Positions 49,126-61,618 of a DNA stretch of 64,000 nt are shown here, in pieces. The notes under the pieces were generated by a model. It saw only the letters and a list, made by a program, of their open reading frames with translations. It had not been told where the DNA came from and did not search any database. The stretch's first letter is position 1. Every line of letters starts with the position of its first letter. The stretch lies in assembly GCF_003044185.1 (NCBI RefSeq), contig NZ_PYYB01000005.1, forward strand, positions 124,001 through 188,000, in the 5' to 3' direction. A program made the position numbers and the translations under genes. This DNA comes from Paraconexibacter algicola (GTDB taxonomy: Bacteria > Actinomycetota > Thermoleophilia > Solirubrobacterales > Solirubrobacteraceae).

Positions 49126-49153
<28 letters not shown>
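47348..49153 (+). CDS. Secreted CocE/NonD (S15-like) alpha/beta hydrolase
   Basis: A 601-residue secreted hydrolase. The signal peptide is [20 protein letters not shown]. The alpha/beta-hydrolase core includes [27 protein letters not shown], the nucleophile serine in [13 protein letters not shown], an aspartate in [11 protein letters not shown] and the histidine of [11 protein letters not shown]. After residue about 340 comes a jelly-roll-like domain as in X-Pro dipeptidyl-peptidase and cocaine esterase, then a cysteine-containing basic C-terminal module. It likely cleaves an ester or amide outside the cell. Its last 28 bases overlap the convergent kinase gene. Confidence 0.83.
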
Positions 49154-50976
<1,823 letters not shown>

Positions 50977-51004: not shown

Positions 51005-51778
51005 TCAGCCAGTCGTCCGCGCCGATCCGCGCAGGATCGTGCGCGCCGAGAGCGCGGGATCGTCGAGCATCGGCAGGTGGCTGCAGCCCGGGAGGGTGAT
51101 CGACACCGCGCGGGGGACGAGCGCGCGGGCCGGCGGCGTCACGAGCCGGTCGAGCTCCCCCCAGGCGAGCAGCACCGGGACGCGGATCCGCTCGCCGCCG
51201 GTGAAGTGGCCGCTGCGCATCGCGCGGTTCGTGGCCGCGAACGCGGGCGCGCTCGCGTAGGCGCTGGCGACCCGCAGGGCGTCCTGCGGGGAGACGTCCC
51301 CGGGGCGGGCGACGATCCCCAGCAATGCGGCCCGCCGGCCGAGCCCGGTGCGCATGAGCGCCGGCAGCGCCGGCCGCAGCGTCCGCGCGACCCGGTGCAT
51401 GACGAACGGCTTGGGCGGCAGCGGTCGCTCCCACAGCGCCGGGCAGAGCCCGGTGACCGAGGCCACCACGTCGCGCCGGGCGAGCTCGAGCGCGATCCAG
51501 CCGCCCAGCGAGTTGCCGGCGACGTGGGGTCGCTCGAGGCCGATCTCGCCCAGGAAGCGGGCGAGCTGCTCGGCGATGGCGGCCGGGGTCGGCACGACGT
51601 CCTGCGCCAGCGGCGCCGACGCGCCGAACCCGGGCAGGTCGACGGTCACCACCTCGCGCTCGGCGCGGAGGTGCTCGACGACCCCGTCCCAGACCTGCCG
51701 CTCCCCGCCGAGGCCGTGCAGCAGGACGACCGGCGGGCCGGTGCCCGTCCGGTCGTACGCGATGCCGGTGGCGCTCAC
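51005..51778 (-). CDS. Alpha/beta hydrolase in the lipid-modification operon
   Basis: A 257-residue alpha/beta-hydrolase. [20 protein letters not shown] holds the oxyanion HG, the nucleophile serine lies in [15 protein letters not shown], the acid in [13 protein letters not shown] and the histidine in [13 protein letters not shown]. The GTG at 51778 overlaps the stop of the DUF1365-CFA gene (GTGA). It is the last gene of a three-gene operon starting at 55097. It may release or remodel modified fatty acids; the substrate is inferred from context only. Confidence 0.88.
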
Positions 51779-53832
51779 GCCACGTGGCGGGTGTGCGGTC
51801 CGTCGTCGGCGAGGTGCAGCGTCGTCACCGGCGCGCTCGTCGGCTGGTCGGGCAGCCCGGGGAGGAGCGCCTCGCCACGGAACCGCGGGCCCGCGAGCAG
51901 GATCTGGACGTCCTGGATCCGGCGCTCGGCGAAGCCGCCCTCGCAGTAGGCGAGGTAGAGCGACCAGATGCGACGGAACTGCTTGTCGTAGCGCTGCTCG
52001 TCCAGGGCGCCCGCGGCGGCGGCCTGCTCGAAGCGCTCGCGCCACGCGGCGAGCGTCGTGACGTAGTGCGGCGTGATGTCCTCGAGCTGCACGTTGCGCA
52101 GCGCGGTGAACGACCCGACGCAGCGCTGGATCTCGCGCACGGACGGCAGGCAGCCGCCGGGGAAGATCAGCTGGTTGATGAAGCTCTTCGTGGCCTTCTC
52201 GACGTCGTAGGCGCGGTCGTCGATCGTGATCGCCTGCAGGAGCATCAGGCCGTCGTCGGCGAGCCGCTCGCCGCAGACGCGGAAGAACGTCGGGAAGTCG
52301 CGCCAGCCGACCGCCTCGATCATCTCGATCGACACGAGCTTCGAGTACGTGCCGGTGAGGTTGCGGTAGTCCTCCAGCAGGACGGTGATGCGGTCCTGCA
52401 GGCCGGCGGCGCGGACGCGCTCGACGGCCAGCGCGTGCTGCTCGCGCGAGATCGTCGTGGTGGTGACGCGGCAGCCGCTGCGGCGCGCGGCGTGGATGGC
52501 GAGACCGCCCCAGCCCGTGCCGATCTCCAGCAGATGGTCGTCGGGACCGAGCTCGAGCTTGTCGCAGATGCGGTCGAGCTTGCACAGCTGCGCCTCGTGC
52601 AGGGTCGCCTCGGGCGTCGGGTAGATCGCCGACGAGTACATCATCGTCTCGTCGAGCATCAGCCCGTAGAGGTCGTTGCCGAGGTCGTAGTGCGCGCTGA
52701 TCTGCTCCTTGGAGCGGTCGATCGTGTTGCGTCGCGCGGTGGCGACCGCGCCCTGGACGGGGGCGAGCACGGGACGCAGGCGACGCCGGTACGCGTCGCC
52801 GCGGTGGATGTTGCGCGCCGCGATCCGCACGATCCCGACGAGGTCGTCGGCGTCCCACCAGCCGTCGCGGTAGCTCTCCGCGAGCCCGAGGCTGCCCTTC
52901 AGCAGGGCGCGGTACGCGCGCTCGTCGTGGATCGTGACCGTCGCGCGCAGCGGCGTGCCGGTCCCGTCCTTCCAGGCGTCCCCGACGGTCGTCGAGCCGT
53001 GCGCGTCGACGAGCGTGAGCTCCCCGTCGCGGATCCAGTGCTTGAGGAGACCGTGCAGGACGGTCCGGGTCTTCGATGCGCGCATGTCCTTCACCGGGTG
53101 GGGGTGGTAGGGGGCGCCCTTGAGCTTGAGCCGCAGGGCGTTGGAGTAGATCAGCGCGCCCGTGCGGGCGCTCTGGAGGGGGAAGCGGGCGAGCAGCCGT
53201 GCCAGCGCGGCGCCGGACAGCTCCTCGCGGCGGAGGTTGAGCGTCGCGTCGAACGCGCTCTCCCCGTCGCTGGCGATGTGGATGCTCCAGGTCGGGCCGG
53301 GCCGCGTGAGCCGGAACCGGTAGCGCTGGGCCATGCCCATCAGCGGCGAGACGTGGAAGACCTTCTCGAACGCGAGGTCCTGCACGCGCGCGTCCGGGTC
53401 GCAGGCGGCGACGTAGGCGTGGCGCTCGTTCCACGGCGTGTTCTCGACGTCGGCGACGATCGCGACCGGGGCGTCGTCGTCCTTCGGGGAGAAGCAGAGG
53501 TAGAAGCTGACGGGGTTGAACGCGCGGCCGAACGTCCGCGGCGTCGTGAGCACGCCGATGCGGCCGGTGGGCCGGGTGCCGAGCCGCTCCTGCACGAGAT
53601 CGCGCACGGCGACGTCGAGCGGCACCGCCGGGTCGCCCAGCAGGTCCGCGCGCGAGACGCCGCCGGGTGTGCGGGGCCGGCGCGCCGACCACAGCGGGGC
53701 GTGCGCGAACAGCTCGTCGGCCTCCTCGAGGTCGATCCAGAGCATGCCGACGTCGTAGGTGAACGCGTGCGCGATCGGCGTCGTGCGGCGGTGGCGGACG
53801 GTGCCGCGGTAGATGGCGGAGCGCCGCGTCAC
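51775..53832 (-). CDS. DUF1365-cyclopropane-fatty-acyl-phospholipid synthase fusion
   Basis: A single uninterrupted 685-residue frame. Residues about 1-245 are DUF1365 (SAIYRGTVRHRRTTPIAHAF, FGRAFNPVSFYLCFS, VENTPWNERHAYV). Residues about 255-685 are a cyclopropane synthase/SAM methyltransferase: SAHYDLGNDLYGLMLDETMM, the SAM motif DHLLEIGTGWGGLAIHAA, SIEMIEAVGWRDFPTFFRVC, FINQLIFPGGCLPS and FRRIWSLYLAYCEGGF. Elsewhere these are usually separate neighbouring genes. The methyltransferase half should add a one-carbon unit to unsaturated phospholipid chains; DUF1365 has no proven activity. GTG 53832 overlaps the FAD-protein stop. Confidence 0.9.
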   Translation of the reverse strand: MTRRSAIYRGTVRHRRTTPIAHAFTYDVGMLWIDLEEADELFAHAPLWSARRPRTPGGVSRADLLGDPAVPLDVAVRDLVQERLGTRPTGRIGVLTTPRTFGRAFNPVSFYLCFSPKDDDAPVAIVADVENTPWNERHAYVAACDPDARVQDLAFEKVFHVSPLMGMAQRYRFRLTRPGPTWSIHIASDGESAFDATLNLRREELSGAALARLLARFPLQSARTGALIYSNALRLKLKGAPYHPHPVKDMRASKTRTVLHGLLKHWIRDGELTLVDAHGSTTVGDAWKDGTGTPLRATVTIHDERAYRALLKGSLGLAESYRDGWWDADDLVGIVRIAARNIHRGDAYRRRLRPVLAPVQGAVATARRNTIDRSKEQISAHYDLGNDLYGLMLDETMMYSSAIYPTPEATLHEAQLCKLDRICDKLELGPDDHLLEIGTGWGGLAIHAARRSGCRVTTTTISREQHALAVERVRAAGLQDRITVLLEDYRNLTGTYSKLVSIEMIEAVGWRDFPTFFRVCGERLADDGLMLLQAITIDDRAYDVEKATKSFINQLIFPGGCLPSVREIQRCVGSFTALRNVQLEDITPHYVTTLAAWRERFEQAAAAGALDEQRYDKQFRRIWSLYLAYCEGGFAERRIQDVQILLAGPRFRGEALLPGLPDQPTSAPVTTLHLADDGPHTRHVA

Positions 53833-55097
53833 GCGGGCGAACCGACCTGGCTGCGGCCCACGCCCGGCAGTGCCTGCAGCGCGCTGAAGACGCCGTCCTC
53901 GTGGAACCCCCAGCGCCAGTACGCCCCGCAGAAGTGGGTCCGGCGCACGCCGCTGATCTCCCCGTGACGGGCCTGGGCGGCGACGCCCTCCGGGGTGAAG
54001 ACCGGGTGCGCGTACTGGATGACCTCGACGATCTTCGCCGGGTCGATGCGGTCGGTGAGGTTCAGCGTCACGCAGAAGTCGTGCGGCGCGTCGAGGCCCA
54101 TCAGGTGGTTCATGCCGTACGTCACGGTCGTGCGGGCCTGGGGCTCGTCGAGCAGGTGGAAGTTCCACGCCTGGCGGGCGGCGTGGCGGCGGGGGAGCAT
54201 CCGCGTGTCGGTGTGCAGCACCGCCTCGTTGGGCTGGTAGGGGAAGCAGGCGAGCAGCTCGCGCTCCAGCGGCGTCGCGTCGTCCCCGAGGATCGCGAGC
54301 GCCTGGTCGGCGTGGCAGGCGAGGATGACCTCGTCGAACCGCTCGGGCTCGCCGCCCACGGGGGTGACCTCGACGTGGGTGTCGAACCGCCGGACGCTCG
54401 CGACCGGGGTCGAGGTGCGGACCGGGCGCTCGAGCCGCGCGGTGATGGCCCGCACGTAGGTCTGCGAGCCCCCGGCGATCGTCATCCACGTCGGCCGGTC
54501 GCGGAAGCTCAGCATCCCGTGGTTGGCGAAGAACTGCGCCATGAACCGGATCGGGAACGCGTCGAGCTGGTCGGGCTCGGCGGACCACACGGCGCTCGCC
54601 TGCGGGACGATCAGCCGGTCGCGGAAGAAGTCCGAGTAGCCGCCCGCGCGCAGGAAGGCGAGCAGCGACAGGTCGCCGCGCAGGTCGGTGGGGTCGGCGA
54701 CGATCGCCGCGAGCTCCTTGTTGAAGCGCAGCAGGTCGCGGATCATCCGCAGGAACGCCGGGCGCACCGCGTTGCGCGGCTGGCAGAACAGGCCCTTCGG
54801 GGTGCCCGCGTACTCGAAGTCCTCGCCCTCGGCGGTGACGCTGAAGCCCATGTGCGTCTCGCGGCGGGCGACGCCGAGCTCGTCCATCATCGCGAGGAAG
54901 TTCGGGTAGGTGCGGTCGTTGCAGACGATGAAGCCCGTGTCGATGTCCCACGCGCCCGCGTCGGTCTCGACGTGCACGGTGTTCGTGTGGCCGCCGACGT
55001 AGGGGCCGGCCTCGAACAGCGTGAGGCCGTGCTCCGCGTGGAGGTGGTGGGCGGCCGTGAGGCCGGAGATGCCGGTGCCGATGATCGCGATGTGCAT
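53829..55097 (-). CDS. FAD-dependent amine-oxidase-like oxidoreductase
   Basis: A 422-residue flavoprotein with the FAD-binding IAIIGTGISGLTAAHHL (GxGxxG) and the FEAGPYVGGHTNTV strand. It contains the conserved VHVETDAGAWDIDTGFIVCN and C-terminal RTHFCGAYWRWGFHEDGVFS motifs of the NAD(P)-binding/amine oxidase group that accompanies cfa and DUF1365 genes. In related clusters such proteins oxidise or reduce acyl chains together with the CFA-like methyltransferase (for example in furan or methyl-branched fatty acid pathways). First gene of the operon; a 23-base palindrome (55173-55195) lies upstream. Confidence 0.88.
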   Translation of the reverse strand: MHIAIIGTGISGLTAAHHLHAEHGLTLFEAGPYVGGHTNTVHVETDAGAWDIDTGFIVCNDRTYPNFLAMMDELGVARRETHMGFSVTAEGEDFEYAGTPKGLFCQPRNAVRPAFLRMIRDLLRFNKELAAIVADPTDLRGDLSLLAFLRAGGYSDFFRDRLIVPQASAVWSAEPDQLDAFPIRFMAQFFANHGMLSFRDRPTWMTIAGGSQTYVRAITARLERPVRTSTPVASVRRFDTHVEVTPVGGEPERFDEVILACHADQALAILGDDATPLERELLACFPYQPNEAVLHTDTRMLPRRHAARQAWNFHLLDEPQARTTVTYGMNHLMGLDAPHDFCVTLNLTDRIDPAKIVEVIQYAHPVFTPEGVAAQARHGEISGVRRTHFCGAYWRWGFHEDGVFSALQALPGVGRSQVGSPA

Positions 55098-55172
55098 GCG
55101 CTACGGGATCTTCGCGCGAACCGCGGCGGCGGATCAGTTCGCCGCCCCGGCGCCGACGGTCCTCGTGTGATC

Positions 55173-55195
55173 TCCGTCACACTCGGTGTGACGGA
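55173..55195. promoter_or_regulatory. Perfect operator-like palindrome in the FAD operon/M23 divergent region
   Basis: TCCGTCACAC-TCG-GTGTGACGGA: 10-bp perfect arms, three-base centre. It lies five bases before TAACCT (-10, plus strand) and 76 bases upstream of the FAD-gene ATG, so it could control either gene. Confidence 0.55.
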
Positions 55196-58519: not shown

Positions 58520-58610
58520 GTGACGCACCCGACCGCTGTCCGGGGTATCGTGCGCGCCGCAGCACACGACGGGGTCATCGCACAGCGTCGCCAGCGGCGT
58601 GGGAGCCCGA

Positions 58611-60029
58611 GTGGAGAGCACACAGATCGAGCAGCAGGGAGGAGGGGGAATCGGCGCCGTCGGTCGCGCCGCGATCGCCGCTGCCCTCGCGCTCGTGGCG
58701 CTGCTCGCCGTGCTGGTGCTGACCGGGGACGAGCCCTACACGGTCAAGGCCCGCTTCCAGGCCGCCACCCAGATGGTCGAGGGCAACCTCGTCCAGAGCG
58801 GCGGCCGCAAGGTCGGGCTCGTCAAGCAGATCGAGCTCACCGACGACGGCCAGGCCGAGCTGACGCTCGAGCTCGACGACGACGTGGCGCCCCTGCGCGA
58901 GGGCACACGCGCCACGTTGCGGCTCGCGTCGCTGTCGAGCATCGTCGGCCGCTACGTCGACCTGCAGATCCCGGAGGAGACACCCGGCTCCCCGCGCGCC
59001 ACGATCGCCGACGGCGGCGTCCTGCCGACCGCCAGCACGACCTCCGCGGTCGACATCGACCAGCTCTTCTCGCTGTTCGACGACAAGACCAAGCGCGGGC
59101 TGCGCGACTTCATCCGCGGCAACGGCACGCTCTACGCGGGCCGCGAGGCGCAGGCCCGGGCGGGCTTCCAGTACCTCAACCCGACGCTCATCGCCTCCCA
59201 GCGCCTGTTCGCCGAGGTCAACCGCGACACGCCGCTGCTGCAGCGCTTCCTGCTCGCCAACGCGCGGCTCGTCACCGACATCGCCGAGCGCTCCGCGGAC
59301 CTCAGCGCGCTGATCGACGGCCTCGCCGACACGACGGGCGCGATCGCGACCGAGGAGGACGACCTCTCGCGCGCCATCGCGCGCCTGCCCGACTTCATGC
59401 GGCGCAGCAACACGACGTTCGTGAACCTGCGCTCCGCGCTCGACGACGTCGAGCCGCTGCTCGAGGAGTCCCGGCCGGTCACCCCGAAGCTGCGGCGCGT
59501 GCTCGCGCAGCTGCGGCCGCTCGCGCAGACCGCGCGTCCGGTCGTGCGCGACCTGTCGAGGACGATCCGCCGGGACGGCAAGGACAACGACCTCATCGAG
59601 CTCGGCCGCGCCGTGCTGCCGTTCCGCGACCAGGTCGTCGCGACGAAGGTCCGCAACGGCCAGGAGCGCCCGGGCACGTTCCCGACGACCGCGAAGTCGC
59701 TCGCCGGCTCGCGCGAGCACCTCGCCTTCCTGCGCCCCTACGCGGTCGACCTCACCGGCTGGTTCGACGACTTCAGCCACTCCGGCGTCTACGACGCCAA
59801 CGGCTCGGTGAGCCGCAACGCCCTGACGGTCAACGCGTTCGCGCTCGCCGACGGGGTGCTGCAGCCGATCCCGCCGGCGCTGCGCGACGCGCTGTTCCAG
59901 ACCACCGCCTCGGTCAGCCAGAACAACCGCTGCCCGGGCTCGGCCGAGCGTCCCGCCGCCGACGGCTCCAACCCGTACGTGCCCGAGGGCTTCGACTGCG
60001 ACCGCACCCAGGTGCCCCCGGGACGATGA
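58611..60029 (+). CDS. Mce/MlaD-family lipid-transport protein (1st of four)
   Basis: A 472-residue protein with an N-terminal membrane anchor (AAIAAALALVALLAVLVLTG), one MCE domain (about 48-120, VKARFQAATQMVEGNLVQSGG, GRYVDLQIP) and a long helical region typical of actinobacterial Mce subunits, ending with a cysteine-containing tail. Mce proteins form a hexameric channel that carries lipids or sterols between cell surface and membrane. GTG 58611 is chosen for GGGAG five bases upstream; GTG 58599 is an alternative. The 3' end overlaps the next Mce gene (ATGA). No yrbE permease gene precedes it. Confidence 0.9.
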   Translation: MESTQIEQQGGGGIGAVGRAAIAAALALVALLAVLVLTGDEPYTVKARFQAATQMVEGNLVQSGGRKVGLVKQIELTDDGQAELTLELDDDVAPLREGTRATLRLASLSSIVGRYVDLQIPEETPGSPRATIADGGVLPTASTTSAVDIDQLFSLFDDKTKRGLRDFIRGNGTLYAGREAQARAGFQYLNPTLIASQRLFAEVNRDTPLLQRFLLANARLVTDIAERSADLSALIDGLADTTGAIATEEDDLSRAIARLPDFMRRSNTTFVNLRSALDDVEPLLEESRPVTPKLRRVLAQLRPLAQTARPVVRDLSRTIRRDGKDNDLIELGRAVLPFRDQVVATKVRNGQERPGTFPTTAKSLAGSREHLAFLRPYAVDLTGWFDDFSHSGVYDANGSVSRNALTVNAFALADGVLQPIPPALRDALFQTTASVSQNNRCPGSAERPAADGSNPYVPEGFDCDRTQVPPGR

Positions 60030-61618
60030 AGCGCGCGCTCCTCGGCCTCCTCGCGCTCGCGCTCGTGGCGACCTTCGCGGTCGTCGGCACCGGCGCGGGC
60101 GACGGCGACGGCAACCCGACCTACTGGGTCGAGCTCGACAACGCGTTCGGGCTGATCGAGGGCGCCGACGTGAAGGTCGCCGGGGTCCGCTCCGGCCAGA
60201 TCAAGACGATGGAGATCACGCGCGACGACTACCGCGCCCGCGTCGAGATCGAGATCACGCAGGACGGATTCGGCGTGCTGCGCCGCAGCGCCGTGTGCGA
60301 GACCCGCCCGCAGTCGCTGATCGGCGAGTACTTCATCGACTGCCAGCCCGGCACCGCCGGACCCGAGCTGCCGCGCGGCGGCACGATCCCCGTCGCGCAG
60401 ACGCGCTCGACCGTCCCGGTCGACCTCGTCAACGACATCTGGCGCCGCCCCTACCGCGAGCGCTTCTCGATCCTGCTCAGCGAGTTCGGCGCCGGGCTCG
60501 CGGCCCGCGGCGGCGACCTCAACGAGACGATCCGCCGCGCCGTGCCCGCGCTGCGCGAGACCGACCAGGTCCTCGCGAAGCTCGCCCAGCAGCGCCGCAC
60601 GATCCGCGACCTCTACCGCGACGCCGACACGGTCGTCACCGCGCTGGCCGACAACCGCGACGACGTCGTGCGGTTCGTCCGCGAGGCGCGCGACACCGCG
60701 GCGGCGAGCGGGTCGCGCAGCGACGAGCTGCGCGAGCAGTTCCGCGCGCTCCCGACCTTCCTCGCCGAGCTCCAGCCGACGATGCGGCTGCTCGGCCGCG
60801 CCGCCGACCGGCAGGTGCCCGCGCTGCGGACCCTGTCCGCGCAGGCGCCGCGTCTGACCCGCTTCCTCGACGCCTTCGGCGACTTCTCGCAGGCGTCGCG
60901 GCCCTCGACCGCCTCGCTCGCGCAGGCCGCGCGCGCCGGCCGCACCGCGGTCGTCGCGCTGCGCCCGCAGGTCCGGCGCCTCAGCCGCGCGGTCACCGAC
61001 CTGCCCGAGCTGGCGCAGAACCTCGCGATCACGCTCGAGCACCTCGACGACCCCGCCAACGCCGTCGAGGACGACGCCCGCAACCCGCGCGGCACCGGCG
61101 GCTACACCGGGCTCGAGGCGCTGCTGCGCTACATCTTCTTCCAGGGCCAGGCCACGAACGTCTTCGACGGCAACGGCCACATGCTCAAGGTCTCCGCCTT
61201 CGTCGACGCCTCGTGCGCGTTCTACTGGGACGCCGCCCGCGCCCGCACCGACAAGGCGCGCGAGCGCTGCTCGACCGCGCTCGGCCCGCGGGCCCCGGGC
61301 ATCAACGAGCCCGACCCGACGGCGACCGGCACCACCCAGACGCGCGCGTCCGAGCGCGAGGACGACGCCCGTCCCGCGCAGCCGGCCGCCACCCCGACGC
61401 CGACCGCGCCCGCCCCGACGGCGACGCCGGCCCCGTCCGCGACGCCGCAGTCCGAGGGCCTCCTCGGCGACCTGCTCGACGGCCTGCTGCCCGACGGCGT
61501 GCTGCCGCCCAAGCTCCAGGACCAGCTCGACGGGCTCGGCGGCGCGCTGACCGGCAAGGGCCAGGGCCGCCCGCAGACGCAGAGCTCCGGCCTCCTCGAC
61601 TACCTGCTGGGGGGCTGA
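60026..61618 (+). CDS. Mce/MlaD-family lipid-transport protein (2nd of four)
   Basis: A 530-residue Mce subunit. A short membrane anchor or signal (ALLGLLALALVATFAVVGTG) precedes the MCE domain (about 32-105, YWVELDNAFGLIEGADVKVAG, SLIGEYFIDCQPG), a long helical part, and a Pro/Thr/Ala-rich linker (about 440-480) before a final Gly/Leu-rich segment (LLGDLLDGLLPDGVLPPKLQ). The ATG overlaps the upstream stop. The proline-rich tail recalls MceC/MceD-type subunits. Confidence 0.9.
   Translation: MKRALLGLLALALVATFAVVGTGAGDGDGNPTYWVELDNAFGLIEGADVKVAGVRSGQIKTMEITRDDYRARVEIEITQDGFGVLRRSAVCETRPQSLIGEYFIDCQPGTAGPELPRGGTIPVAQTRSTVPVDLVNDIWRRPYRERFSILLSEFGAGLAARGGDLNETIRRAVPALRETDQVLAKLAQQRRTIRDLYRDADTVVTALADNRDDVVRFVREARDTAAASGSRSDELREQFRALPTFLAELQPTMRLLGRAADRQVPALRTLSAQAPRLTRFLDAFGDFSQASRPSTASLAQAARAGRTAVVALRPQVRRLSRAVTDLPELAQNLAITLEHLDDPANAVEDDARNPRGTGGYTGLEALLRYIFFQGQATNVFDGNGHMLKVSAFVDASCAFYWDAARARTDKARERCSTALGPRAPGINEPDPTATGTTQTRASEREDDARPAQPAATPTPTAPAPTATPAPSATPQSEGLLGDLLDGLLPDGVLPPKLQDQLDGLGGALTGKGQGRPQTQSSGLLDYLLGG

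What the first reader, a model, noticed from the sequence alone, without database searches (positions are those of the whole stretch)
51005..55097. DUF1365-cyclopropane synthase fusion in a FAD/methyltransferase/hydrolase operon
Genes for a flavin amine-oxidase-like protein, DUF1365 and CFA-type synthase usually lie side by side. Here the last two form one 685-residue protein, implying that DUF1365 acts directly with the methyltransferase. The hydrolase joins them by GTGA overlap. The set may make an unusual cyclic, methyl-branched or furan-type fatty acid.
Basis: partly seen in the sequence, partly recalled or inferred. Interest (0 to 1): 0.62.

Follow-up and report, generated by a model that had tools for sequence, protein, structure and literature searches.

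The report
Fused furan fatty acid enzymes
A soil-type actinobacterium carries a known three-gene set for making protective methyl-furan fatty acids, with two of the three enzymes joined into one protein; the joining is uncommon and has arisen separately at least three times in this bacterial class, but the pathway itself is already described.

Summary
Window 51775-53832(-) encodes one 685-aa protein with DUF1365 (7-246) and CFA-type methyltransferase (373-643) domains, behind an FAD amine-oxidase-like gene and before an alpha/beta hydrolase gene, joined by GTGA overlaps. The trio matches UfaD, UfaO (DUF1365) and UfaM, which make methyl-furan fatty acids in Rhodobacter and Rhodopseudomonas. The methyltransferase half is not a canonical cyclopropane synthase: E. 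coli His266 and the His after Glu239 are replaced by Gln and Ala, as in all 120 relatives compared. The fusion is not unique. In most relatives the two genes overlap by 4 nt, but all 20 loci examined from another family of the same class are fused, as is one more MAG of the window's genus; a tree needs three separate changes. The window's junction keeps a relic GTGA exactly where relatives have the overlap, so one base in a C-rich run made the fusion: real (about 85%) or an assembly error (about 15%). AlphaFold gives DUF1365 a confident barrel and no evidence of a fixed domain interface.

The parts
53829..55097 (-). UfaD-like FAD-dependent (amine-oxidase superfamily) desaturase candidate, 422 aa
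   Evidence: Pfam Amino_oxidase 2.9e-23 and NAD_binding_8; directly upstream of DUF1365 in 110 of 114 loci, 4-nt overlap in 93 of 110
51775..53832 (-). UfaO-UfaM fusion, 685 aa (stop included in the coordinates)
53095..53814 (-). DUF1365 (UfaO-like) domain, residues 7-246: predicted beta barrel plus two C-terminal helices
   Evidence: Pfam 221 bits; AlphaFold2 model mean pLDDT 92.6; H14, R16, P107, K157 invariant and H160, H138, D34, D63 nearly so in 97 separate relatives
53083..53100 (-). fusion junction, residues 245-250 (HPVKDM); relic GTGA at codons 247/248
   Evidence: relatives have the 4-nt gene overlap at this place; pLDDT under 50 at residues 245-248 in the fusion model
51904..52716 (-). 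CFA-type (UfaM-like) methyltransferase domain, residues 373-643; S401, E506, A507, Q533, I535, Y590 at the CFA-synthase active-site columns
51005..51778 (-). alpha/beta hydrolase, 257 aa; optional downstream gene
   Evidence: Pfam Abhydrolase_6 3.3e-24; directly downstream in 17 of 114 loci
55166..55181 (.). TGTGACGGAGATCACA, a perfect CRP-type palindrome 84 nt upstream of the FAD gene start
   Evidence: only match in the window (0.01 expected by chance), one of 3 sites in the genome; absent upstream of the other FAD genes tested

Best explanation
This is an operon for methylated (most likely furan) fatty acids of the Ufa type. The steps in phospholipid acyl chains would be: (1) the C-terminal half of the fusion (UfaM-like) methylates a cis-monounsaturated chain to a methyl-branched trans-olefin; (2) the separate FAD protein (UfaD-like) desaturates it to a methylated diene; (3) the N-terminal half of the fusion (DUF1365, UfaO-like) inserts oxygen from O2 to close the furan. 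The fusion ties the first and last enzymes at fixed stoichiometry. It came from a single-base shift at the ancestral 4-nt gene overlap, independently of two other fusions in the class. Shown here: domain content, gene order, non-canonical active site, three separate changes of the fusion state on the tree. Inferred from characterised homologues: the chemistry. Not known: whether the tether changes flux, and what the hydrolase does.
For: Domains and gene order. [quoted passage not shown] sphaeroides and for the R. palustris homologues (PMC7380195). The CFA half lacks residues of the cyclopropane-synthase active site: the solved cyclopropane synthases 6bqc, 5z9o and 7qos all have EH and H where this protein has E506-A507 and Q533; A and Q are invariant in 120 relatives and in 20 further fusions. 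MmaA4, which adds a methyl without closing a cyclopropane, also has Q there, and MmaA1 has A at the other site. The score is below the NCBIfam cut-offs for Cfa equivalogs. Relatives place the set beside ECF sigma, photolyase, DUF1295, SDR and MerR-DICT genes, beside a ChrR anti-sigma gene (Shinella) and beside photolyase genes, fitting a singlet-oxygen or light response. Fusion in 20 of 20 family-f5 loci and in L003/L035; three changes forced by starred branches.
Against: No product has been measured in this organism. The characterised UfaM and UfaO sequences are not held here, so homology to them rests on domain identity, gene order and the papers, not on a direct alignment. The A507/Q533 signature was not checked on R. 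sphaeroides UfaM. Related species have oleate (C18:1 w9c), not cis-vaccenate, as the main 18:1 (PMC10722151, PMC3035278), so the product may be a different isomer. No fixed arrangement of the halves is predicted (pTM 0.68).
Confidence: 0.72

Rival explanations
1. The fusion is a sequencing or assembly error: one extra base in the C-rich run ACCCCCACCCGG joins two genes that in reality overlap by GTGA, as in relatives.
For: A relic GTGA lies exactly at the ancestral overlap. The closest relative by tree, Paraconexibacter antarcticus (66% identical), is split. A frameshift-like break was seen about once per 86 kb of aligned coding sequence in this genome (1 of 3 automatic calls survived inspection).
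Against: At that rate an error inside this 30-60 bp stretch has a chance under 0.1%, somewhat more for a C-rich run, against roughly 1% of Solirubrobacterales loci with a genuine fusion (L003/L035, whose junction has no relic stop). The same fusion is fixed in family f5.
Confidence: 0.15
2. The set makes a methyl-branched or dienoic fatty acid, or an oxidised product other than a furan; DUF1365 here does another oxidation.
For: Only two alphaproteobacterial UfaO proteins have been tested (PMC7380195). The lineage is distant (about 30-42% identity to proteobacterial DUF1365). Its relatives' main 18:1 is oleate (PMC10722151).
Against: The same three-gene set is kept across phyla, and the most conserved DUF1365 residues (H14, R16, P107, K157) are kept in every relative.
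Confidence: 0.2
3. An ordinary cyclopropane fatty acid synthase with an accessory domain.
For: The Cfa family is the best PDB match (6bqc, 1.3e-55). Halomonas ufaM expression also coincided with cyclic fatty acids in E. coli (PMC12089945).
Against: His266 to Gln and the His after Glu239 to Ala, invariant in the whole DUF1365-linked family; below NCBIfam cut-offs.
Confidence: 0.06

Closest known systems
Ufa furan fatty acid pathway (UfaM RSP2144 / UfaD RSP1091 / UfaO RSP1090; RPA2569-2571)
   Same: Same three protein families; DUF1365 and FAD genes adjacent; stress-regulon neighbours in relatives
   Different: UfaO and UfaM are one protein; in R. sphaeroides ufaM lies away from ufaD and ufaO; host is an actinobacterium whose relatives have oleate-type 18:1; a hydrolase gene is attached
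AtUFAMD1 (AT3G23510), plant protein similar to UfaM and UfaD
   Same: Two Ufa enzymes in one polypeptide including the CFA-type methyltransferase (PMC10940516)
   Different: The plant protein joins UfaD and UfaM; here UfaO and UfaM are joined
DUF1365-methyltransferase protein of Desulfococcus oleovorans Hxd3 (listed once in PMC2613160)
   Same: The table lists a DUF1365-OMT domain combination
   Different: Found only as a table entry; sequence not compared here; methyltransferase typed there as OMT
Family-f5 fusions of the same class (L261-L275, L282, L283, L291, L292, L296)
   Same: Same domain order, FAD gene upstream, 669-701 aa
   Different: Longer proline-rich conserved linker; separate origin on the tree
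E. coli Cfa / mycolic acid methyltransferases
   Same: SAM-dependent CFA/CmaA family
   Different: Active-site substitutions A507 and Q533; N-terminal DUF1365

Membership tests
Ufa furan fatty acid pathway | FAD amine-oxidase-like UfaD, DUF1365 UfaO and CFA-type UfaM encoded together or in one genome | tested here: met
   single DUF1365 gene in the genome
Ufa furan fatty acid pathway | Methyltransferase distinct from canonical Cfa | tested here: met
   A507, Q533 invariant in 120 linked relatives, EH/H in solved cyclopropane synthases; NCBIfam Cfa cut-offs not reached
Ufa furan fatty acid pathway | Direct orthology to characterised RSP2144/RSP1090/RSP1091 | not tested
Ufa furan fatty acid pathway | Product: methyl-furan fatty acid, oxygen from O2 | not testable with these tools
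   needs GC-MS
Canonical cyclopropane fatty acid synthase | Active-site Cys139, Glu239, His266, Ile268 and Tyr (E. coli numbering) | tested here: not met
   window S401, E506, Q533, I535, Y590
DUF1365 (PF07103) | Pfam match over cut-off | tested here: met
   221 bits against a cut-off of 25
Calycin / nitrobindin-like barrel (fold of DUF1365) | Structural match to solved calycins | tested here: inconclusive
   Foldseek best E 0.015 (nitrobindin), VIA Z 7.3 over 132 residues, within the range of chance barrel matches

The most novel reading that the evidence does not exclude
The fusion is real and selected: first and last enzymes of a furan fatty acid pathway are tethered on the membrane with the FAD desaturase docking between them, an arrangement evolved at least three times in this class, and it makes furan isomers derived from oleate rather than cis-vaccenate.
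Probability: 0.25. Interest if true: 0.55.

Novelty: new variant of a known kind. Interest (0 to 1): 0.38.

Why it matters
It places a furan fatty acid pathway, known from alphaproteobacteria and inferred in plants, in a large uncultured-rich actinobacterial class. It gives a residue signature (EA and Q) to separate its methyltransferases from cyclopropane synthases in annotation. It also supplies natural UfaO-UfaM fusions, including a whole family with an ancient one, as tools to test channelling and to study UfaO, an oxygenase whose cofactor is unknown.

Tried and rejected
Reading Oleispira, Bermanella, Oleiphilaceae and Patulibacter loci as further fusions: the two genes are in one frame but a stop lies between them. 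Taking all automatic frameshift calls as errors: two of three in this genome were antisense ORFs. A mixed alignment of separate DUF1365 and CFA rows misaligned the halves and was not used; rows reading through stops were used instead, with only seven rows covering DUF1365. Plasmid-borne sets were searched for fusions: the DUF1365 and methyltransferase genes are annotated separately wherever both are listed in the rows shown. Among 398 Pseudomonadota genomes no uninterrupted match across both halves was listed, but fusions with a divergent linker could be missed. No solved DUF1365 relative by sequence. One paper search for Rv0448c/Rv0449c/ufaA1/SigK (from memory, the mycobacterial counterpart) found nothing held. 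Calycin fold searches gave only middling matches, and a family not listed there is not excluded.

Full report
What is there. Three genes on the minus strand, 55097 down to 51005, overlap head to tail by GTGA: an FAD-dependent amine-oxidase-superfamily protein (422 aa), a 685-aa protein with DUF1365 at 7-246 and a CFA/mycolic-acid-type methyltransferase at 373-643, and an alpha/beta hydrolase (257 aa). The genome (4.74 Mb, 6 contigs) has one DUF1365 gene, and its only other match to the methyltransferase half is 23% identical. A same-genus genome, G007, has the contig length of Paraconexibacter antarcticus NZ_CP098502, so the window comes from a Paraconexibacter-like member of the Solirubrobacterales.

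What the trio is. The three families are those of the furan fatty acid pathway of Rhodobacter sphaeroides and Rhodopseudomonas palustris: UfaM (methyltransferase; cis-vaccenate to 11Me-12t-18:1), UfaD (desaturation to 11Me-10t,12t-18:2) and UfaO, a DUF1365 protein that puts an O2-derived oxygen into the furan ring (PMC7380195). Halomonas has the three genes in a row, and its UfaM gave 11-methyl-octadec-12-enoate in E. coli (PMC12089945). Plants have a protein similar to both UfaM and UfaD (PMC10940516). The pathway assignment here is by homology and gene order; no product has been measured.

The methyltransferase half is not a canonical cyclopropane synthase. Against E. coli Cfa (6bqc), the columns of Cys139, Glu239, the following His, His266, Ile268 and the conserved Tyr read S401, E506, A507, Q533, I535, Y590. 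The roles of these E. coli residues are from general knowledge of Cfa. A507 and Q533 are invariant in 120 relatives from actinobacterial and proteobacterial loci, and in 20 further fusions; the Cys column is variable (C, S, A). In the solved set, MmaA4 also has Gln at the His266 column and MmaA1 has Ala at the column of the His after Glu239. NCBIfam Cfa models match below their cut-offs.

The fusion. In 114 distinct loci with the two genes adjacent, 75 overlap by exactly 4 nt; the FAD gene overlaps DUF1365 by 4 nt in 93 of 110. In that set the fused loci are the window, L003 (same sequence as L035, a MAG of the window's genus) and L137. Reading further loci of the class showed that all 20 loci examined of family code f5, from several genera, are fused (669-701 aa) with a longer, conserved proline-rich linker, while families f7, f10, f11 and f12 are split, mostly by the 4-nt overlap. 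On a tree of both halves (94 rows, 22 fused) the label needs three changes, all forced by starred branches; the window's sister is the split P. antarcticus pair (96), and L003's sister is the split L101 (100). If split is the ancestral state, as the many split lineages suggest, the fusion arose three times.

Is the window's fusion real? The sequence ...TACCACCCCCACCCGGTGAAGGACATG keeps a GTGA at codons 247/248, where relatives have their overlap. One base more or less in the C-rich run makes or unmakes the fusion. In 99 genes aligned to G007 (28,717 aa) one convincing frameshift was seen in this genome, about one per 86 kb. I put a real fusion at about 85%; this is a judgement, not a computed probability. 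If real, an internal start (GTG247 or ATG250) could still yield free methyltransferase.

Structure. DUF1365 alone: mean pLDDT 92.6, pTM 0.89; mostly strands between 6 and 204, then helices 207-216 and 220-237. The best matches are nitrobindin, FABP and lipocalin-like barrels, but weak (Foldseek E 0.015; VIA Z 7.3, within the range of chance). Fusion model: pLDDT 85, pTM 0.68, linker 245-248 under 50: no evidence for a fixed interface, with only seven rows covering the DUF1365 half.

Role. Loci of relatives carry ECF sigma, photolyase, DUF1295, SDR, MerR-DICT and SRPBCC genes near the set. Plasmid copies sit near ChrR anti-sigma (Shinella) or photolyase (Legionella, Pseudoalteromonas). This fits a light or singlet-oxygen response, as in R. 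sphaeroides. The window itself has none of these next to it; it has a perfect TGTGA-N6-TCACA palindrome 84 nt upstream and a hybrid histidine kinase gene starting 28 nt after the hydrolase.

Limits. Related Solirubrobacterales contain mainly oleate, so the product may be an isomer of the known furan acids (inference; PMC10722151, PMC3035278). Whether the tether matters, and what the hydrolase does, are open.

Noticed in passing
window 55166-55181: Perfect CRP-type palindrome TGTGACGGAGATCACA, one of three in the whole genome, between the operon and the divergent M23 peptidase gene; not seen upstream of the FAD gene in the relatives tested.
   Followed up: partly
window 49126-50976 (-): Hybrid histidine kinase with receiver domain starts 28 nt after the hydrolase stop on the same strand; the gene-cluster comparison grouped no counterpart of it at the P. 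antarcticus locus.
   Followed up: partly
L261-L275, L282, L283, L291, L292, L296: A whole family of the same class carries an apparently ancient DUF1365-methyltransferase fusion with a conserved proline-rich linker; G176 has two copies (L271, L272).
   Followed up: yes
L050, L059, L070: Solirubrobacter species carry the operon; C18:3 w6c(6,9,12) reported by MIDI for S. taibaiensis (PMC10722151) could be a misread methyl-diene or furan acid.
   Followed up: no
L040, L063: MAG records labelled Bifidobacterium breve and Chlamydiae carry Solirubrobacterales-type ufa operons; the labels look wrong.
   Followed up: no
L199:480-659: Likely one-base frameshift in another gene of the window's genome, relevant to its error or pseudogene rate.
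   Followed up: partly
window 58599-61618 (+): Two successive reading frames look like Mce/MlaD-type proteins (judged by eye).
   Followed up: no
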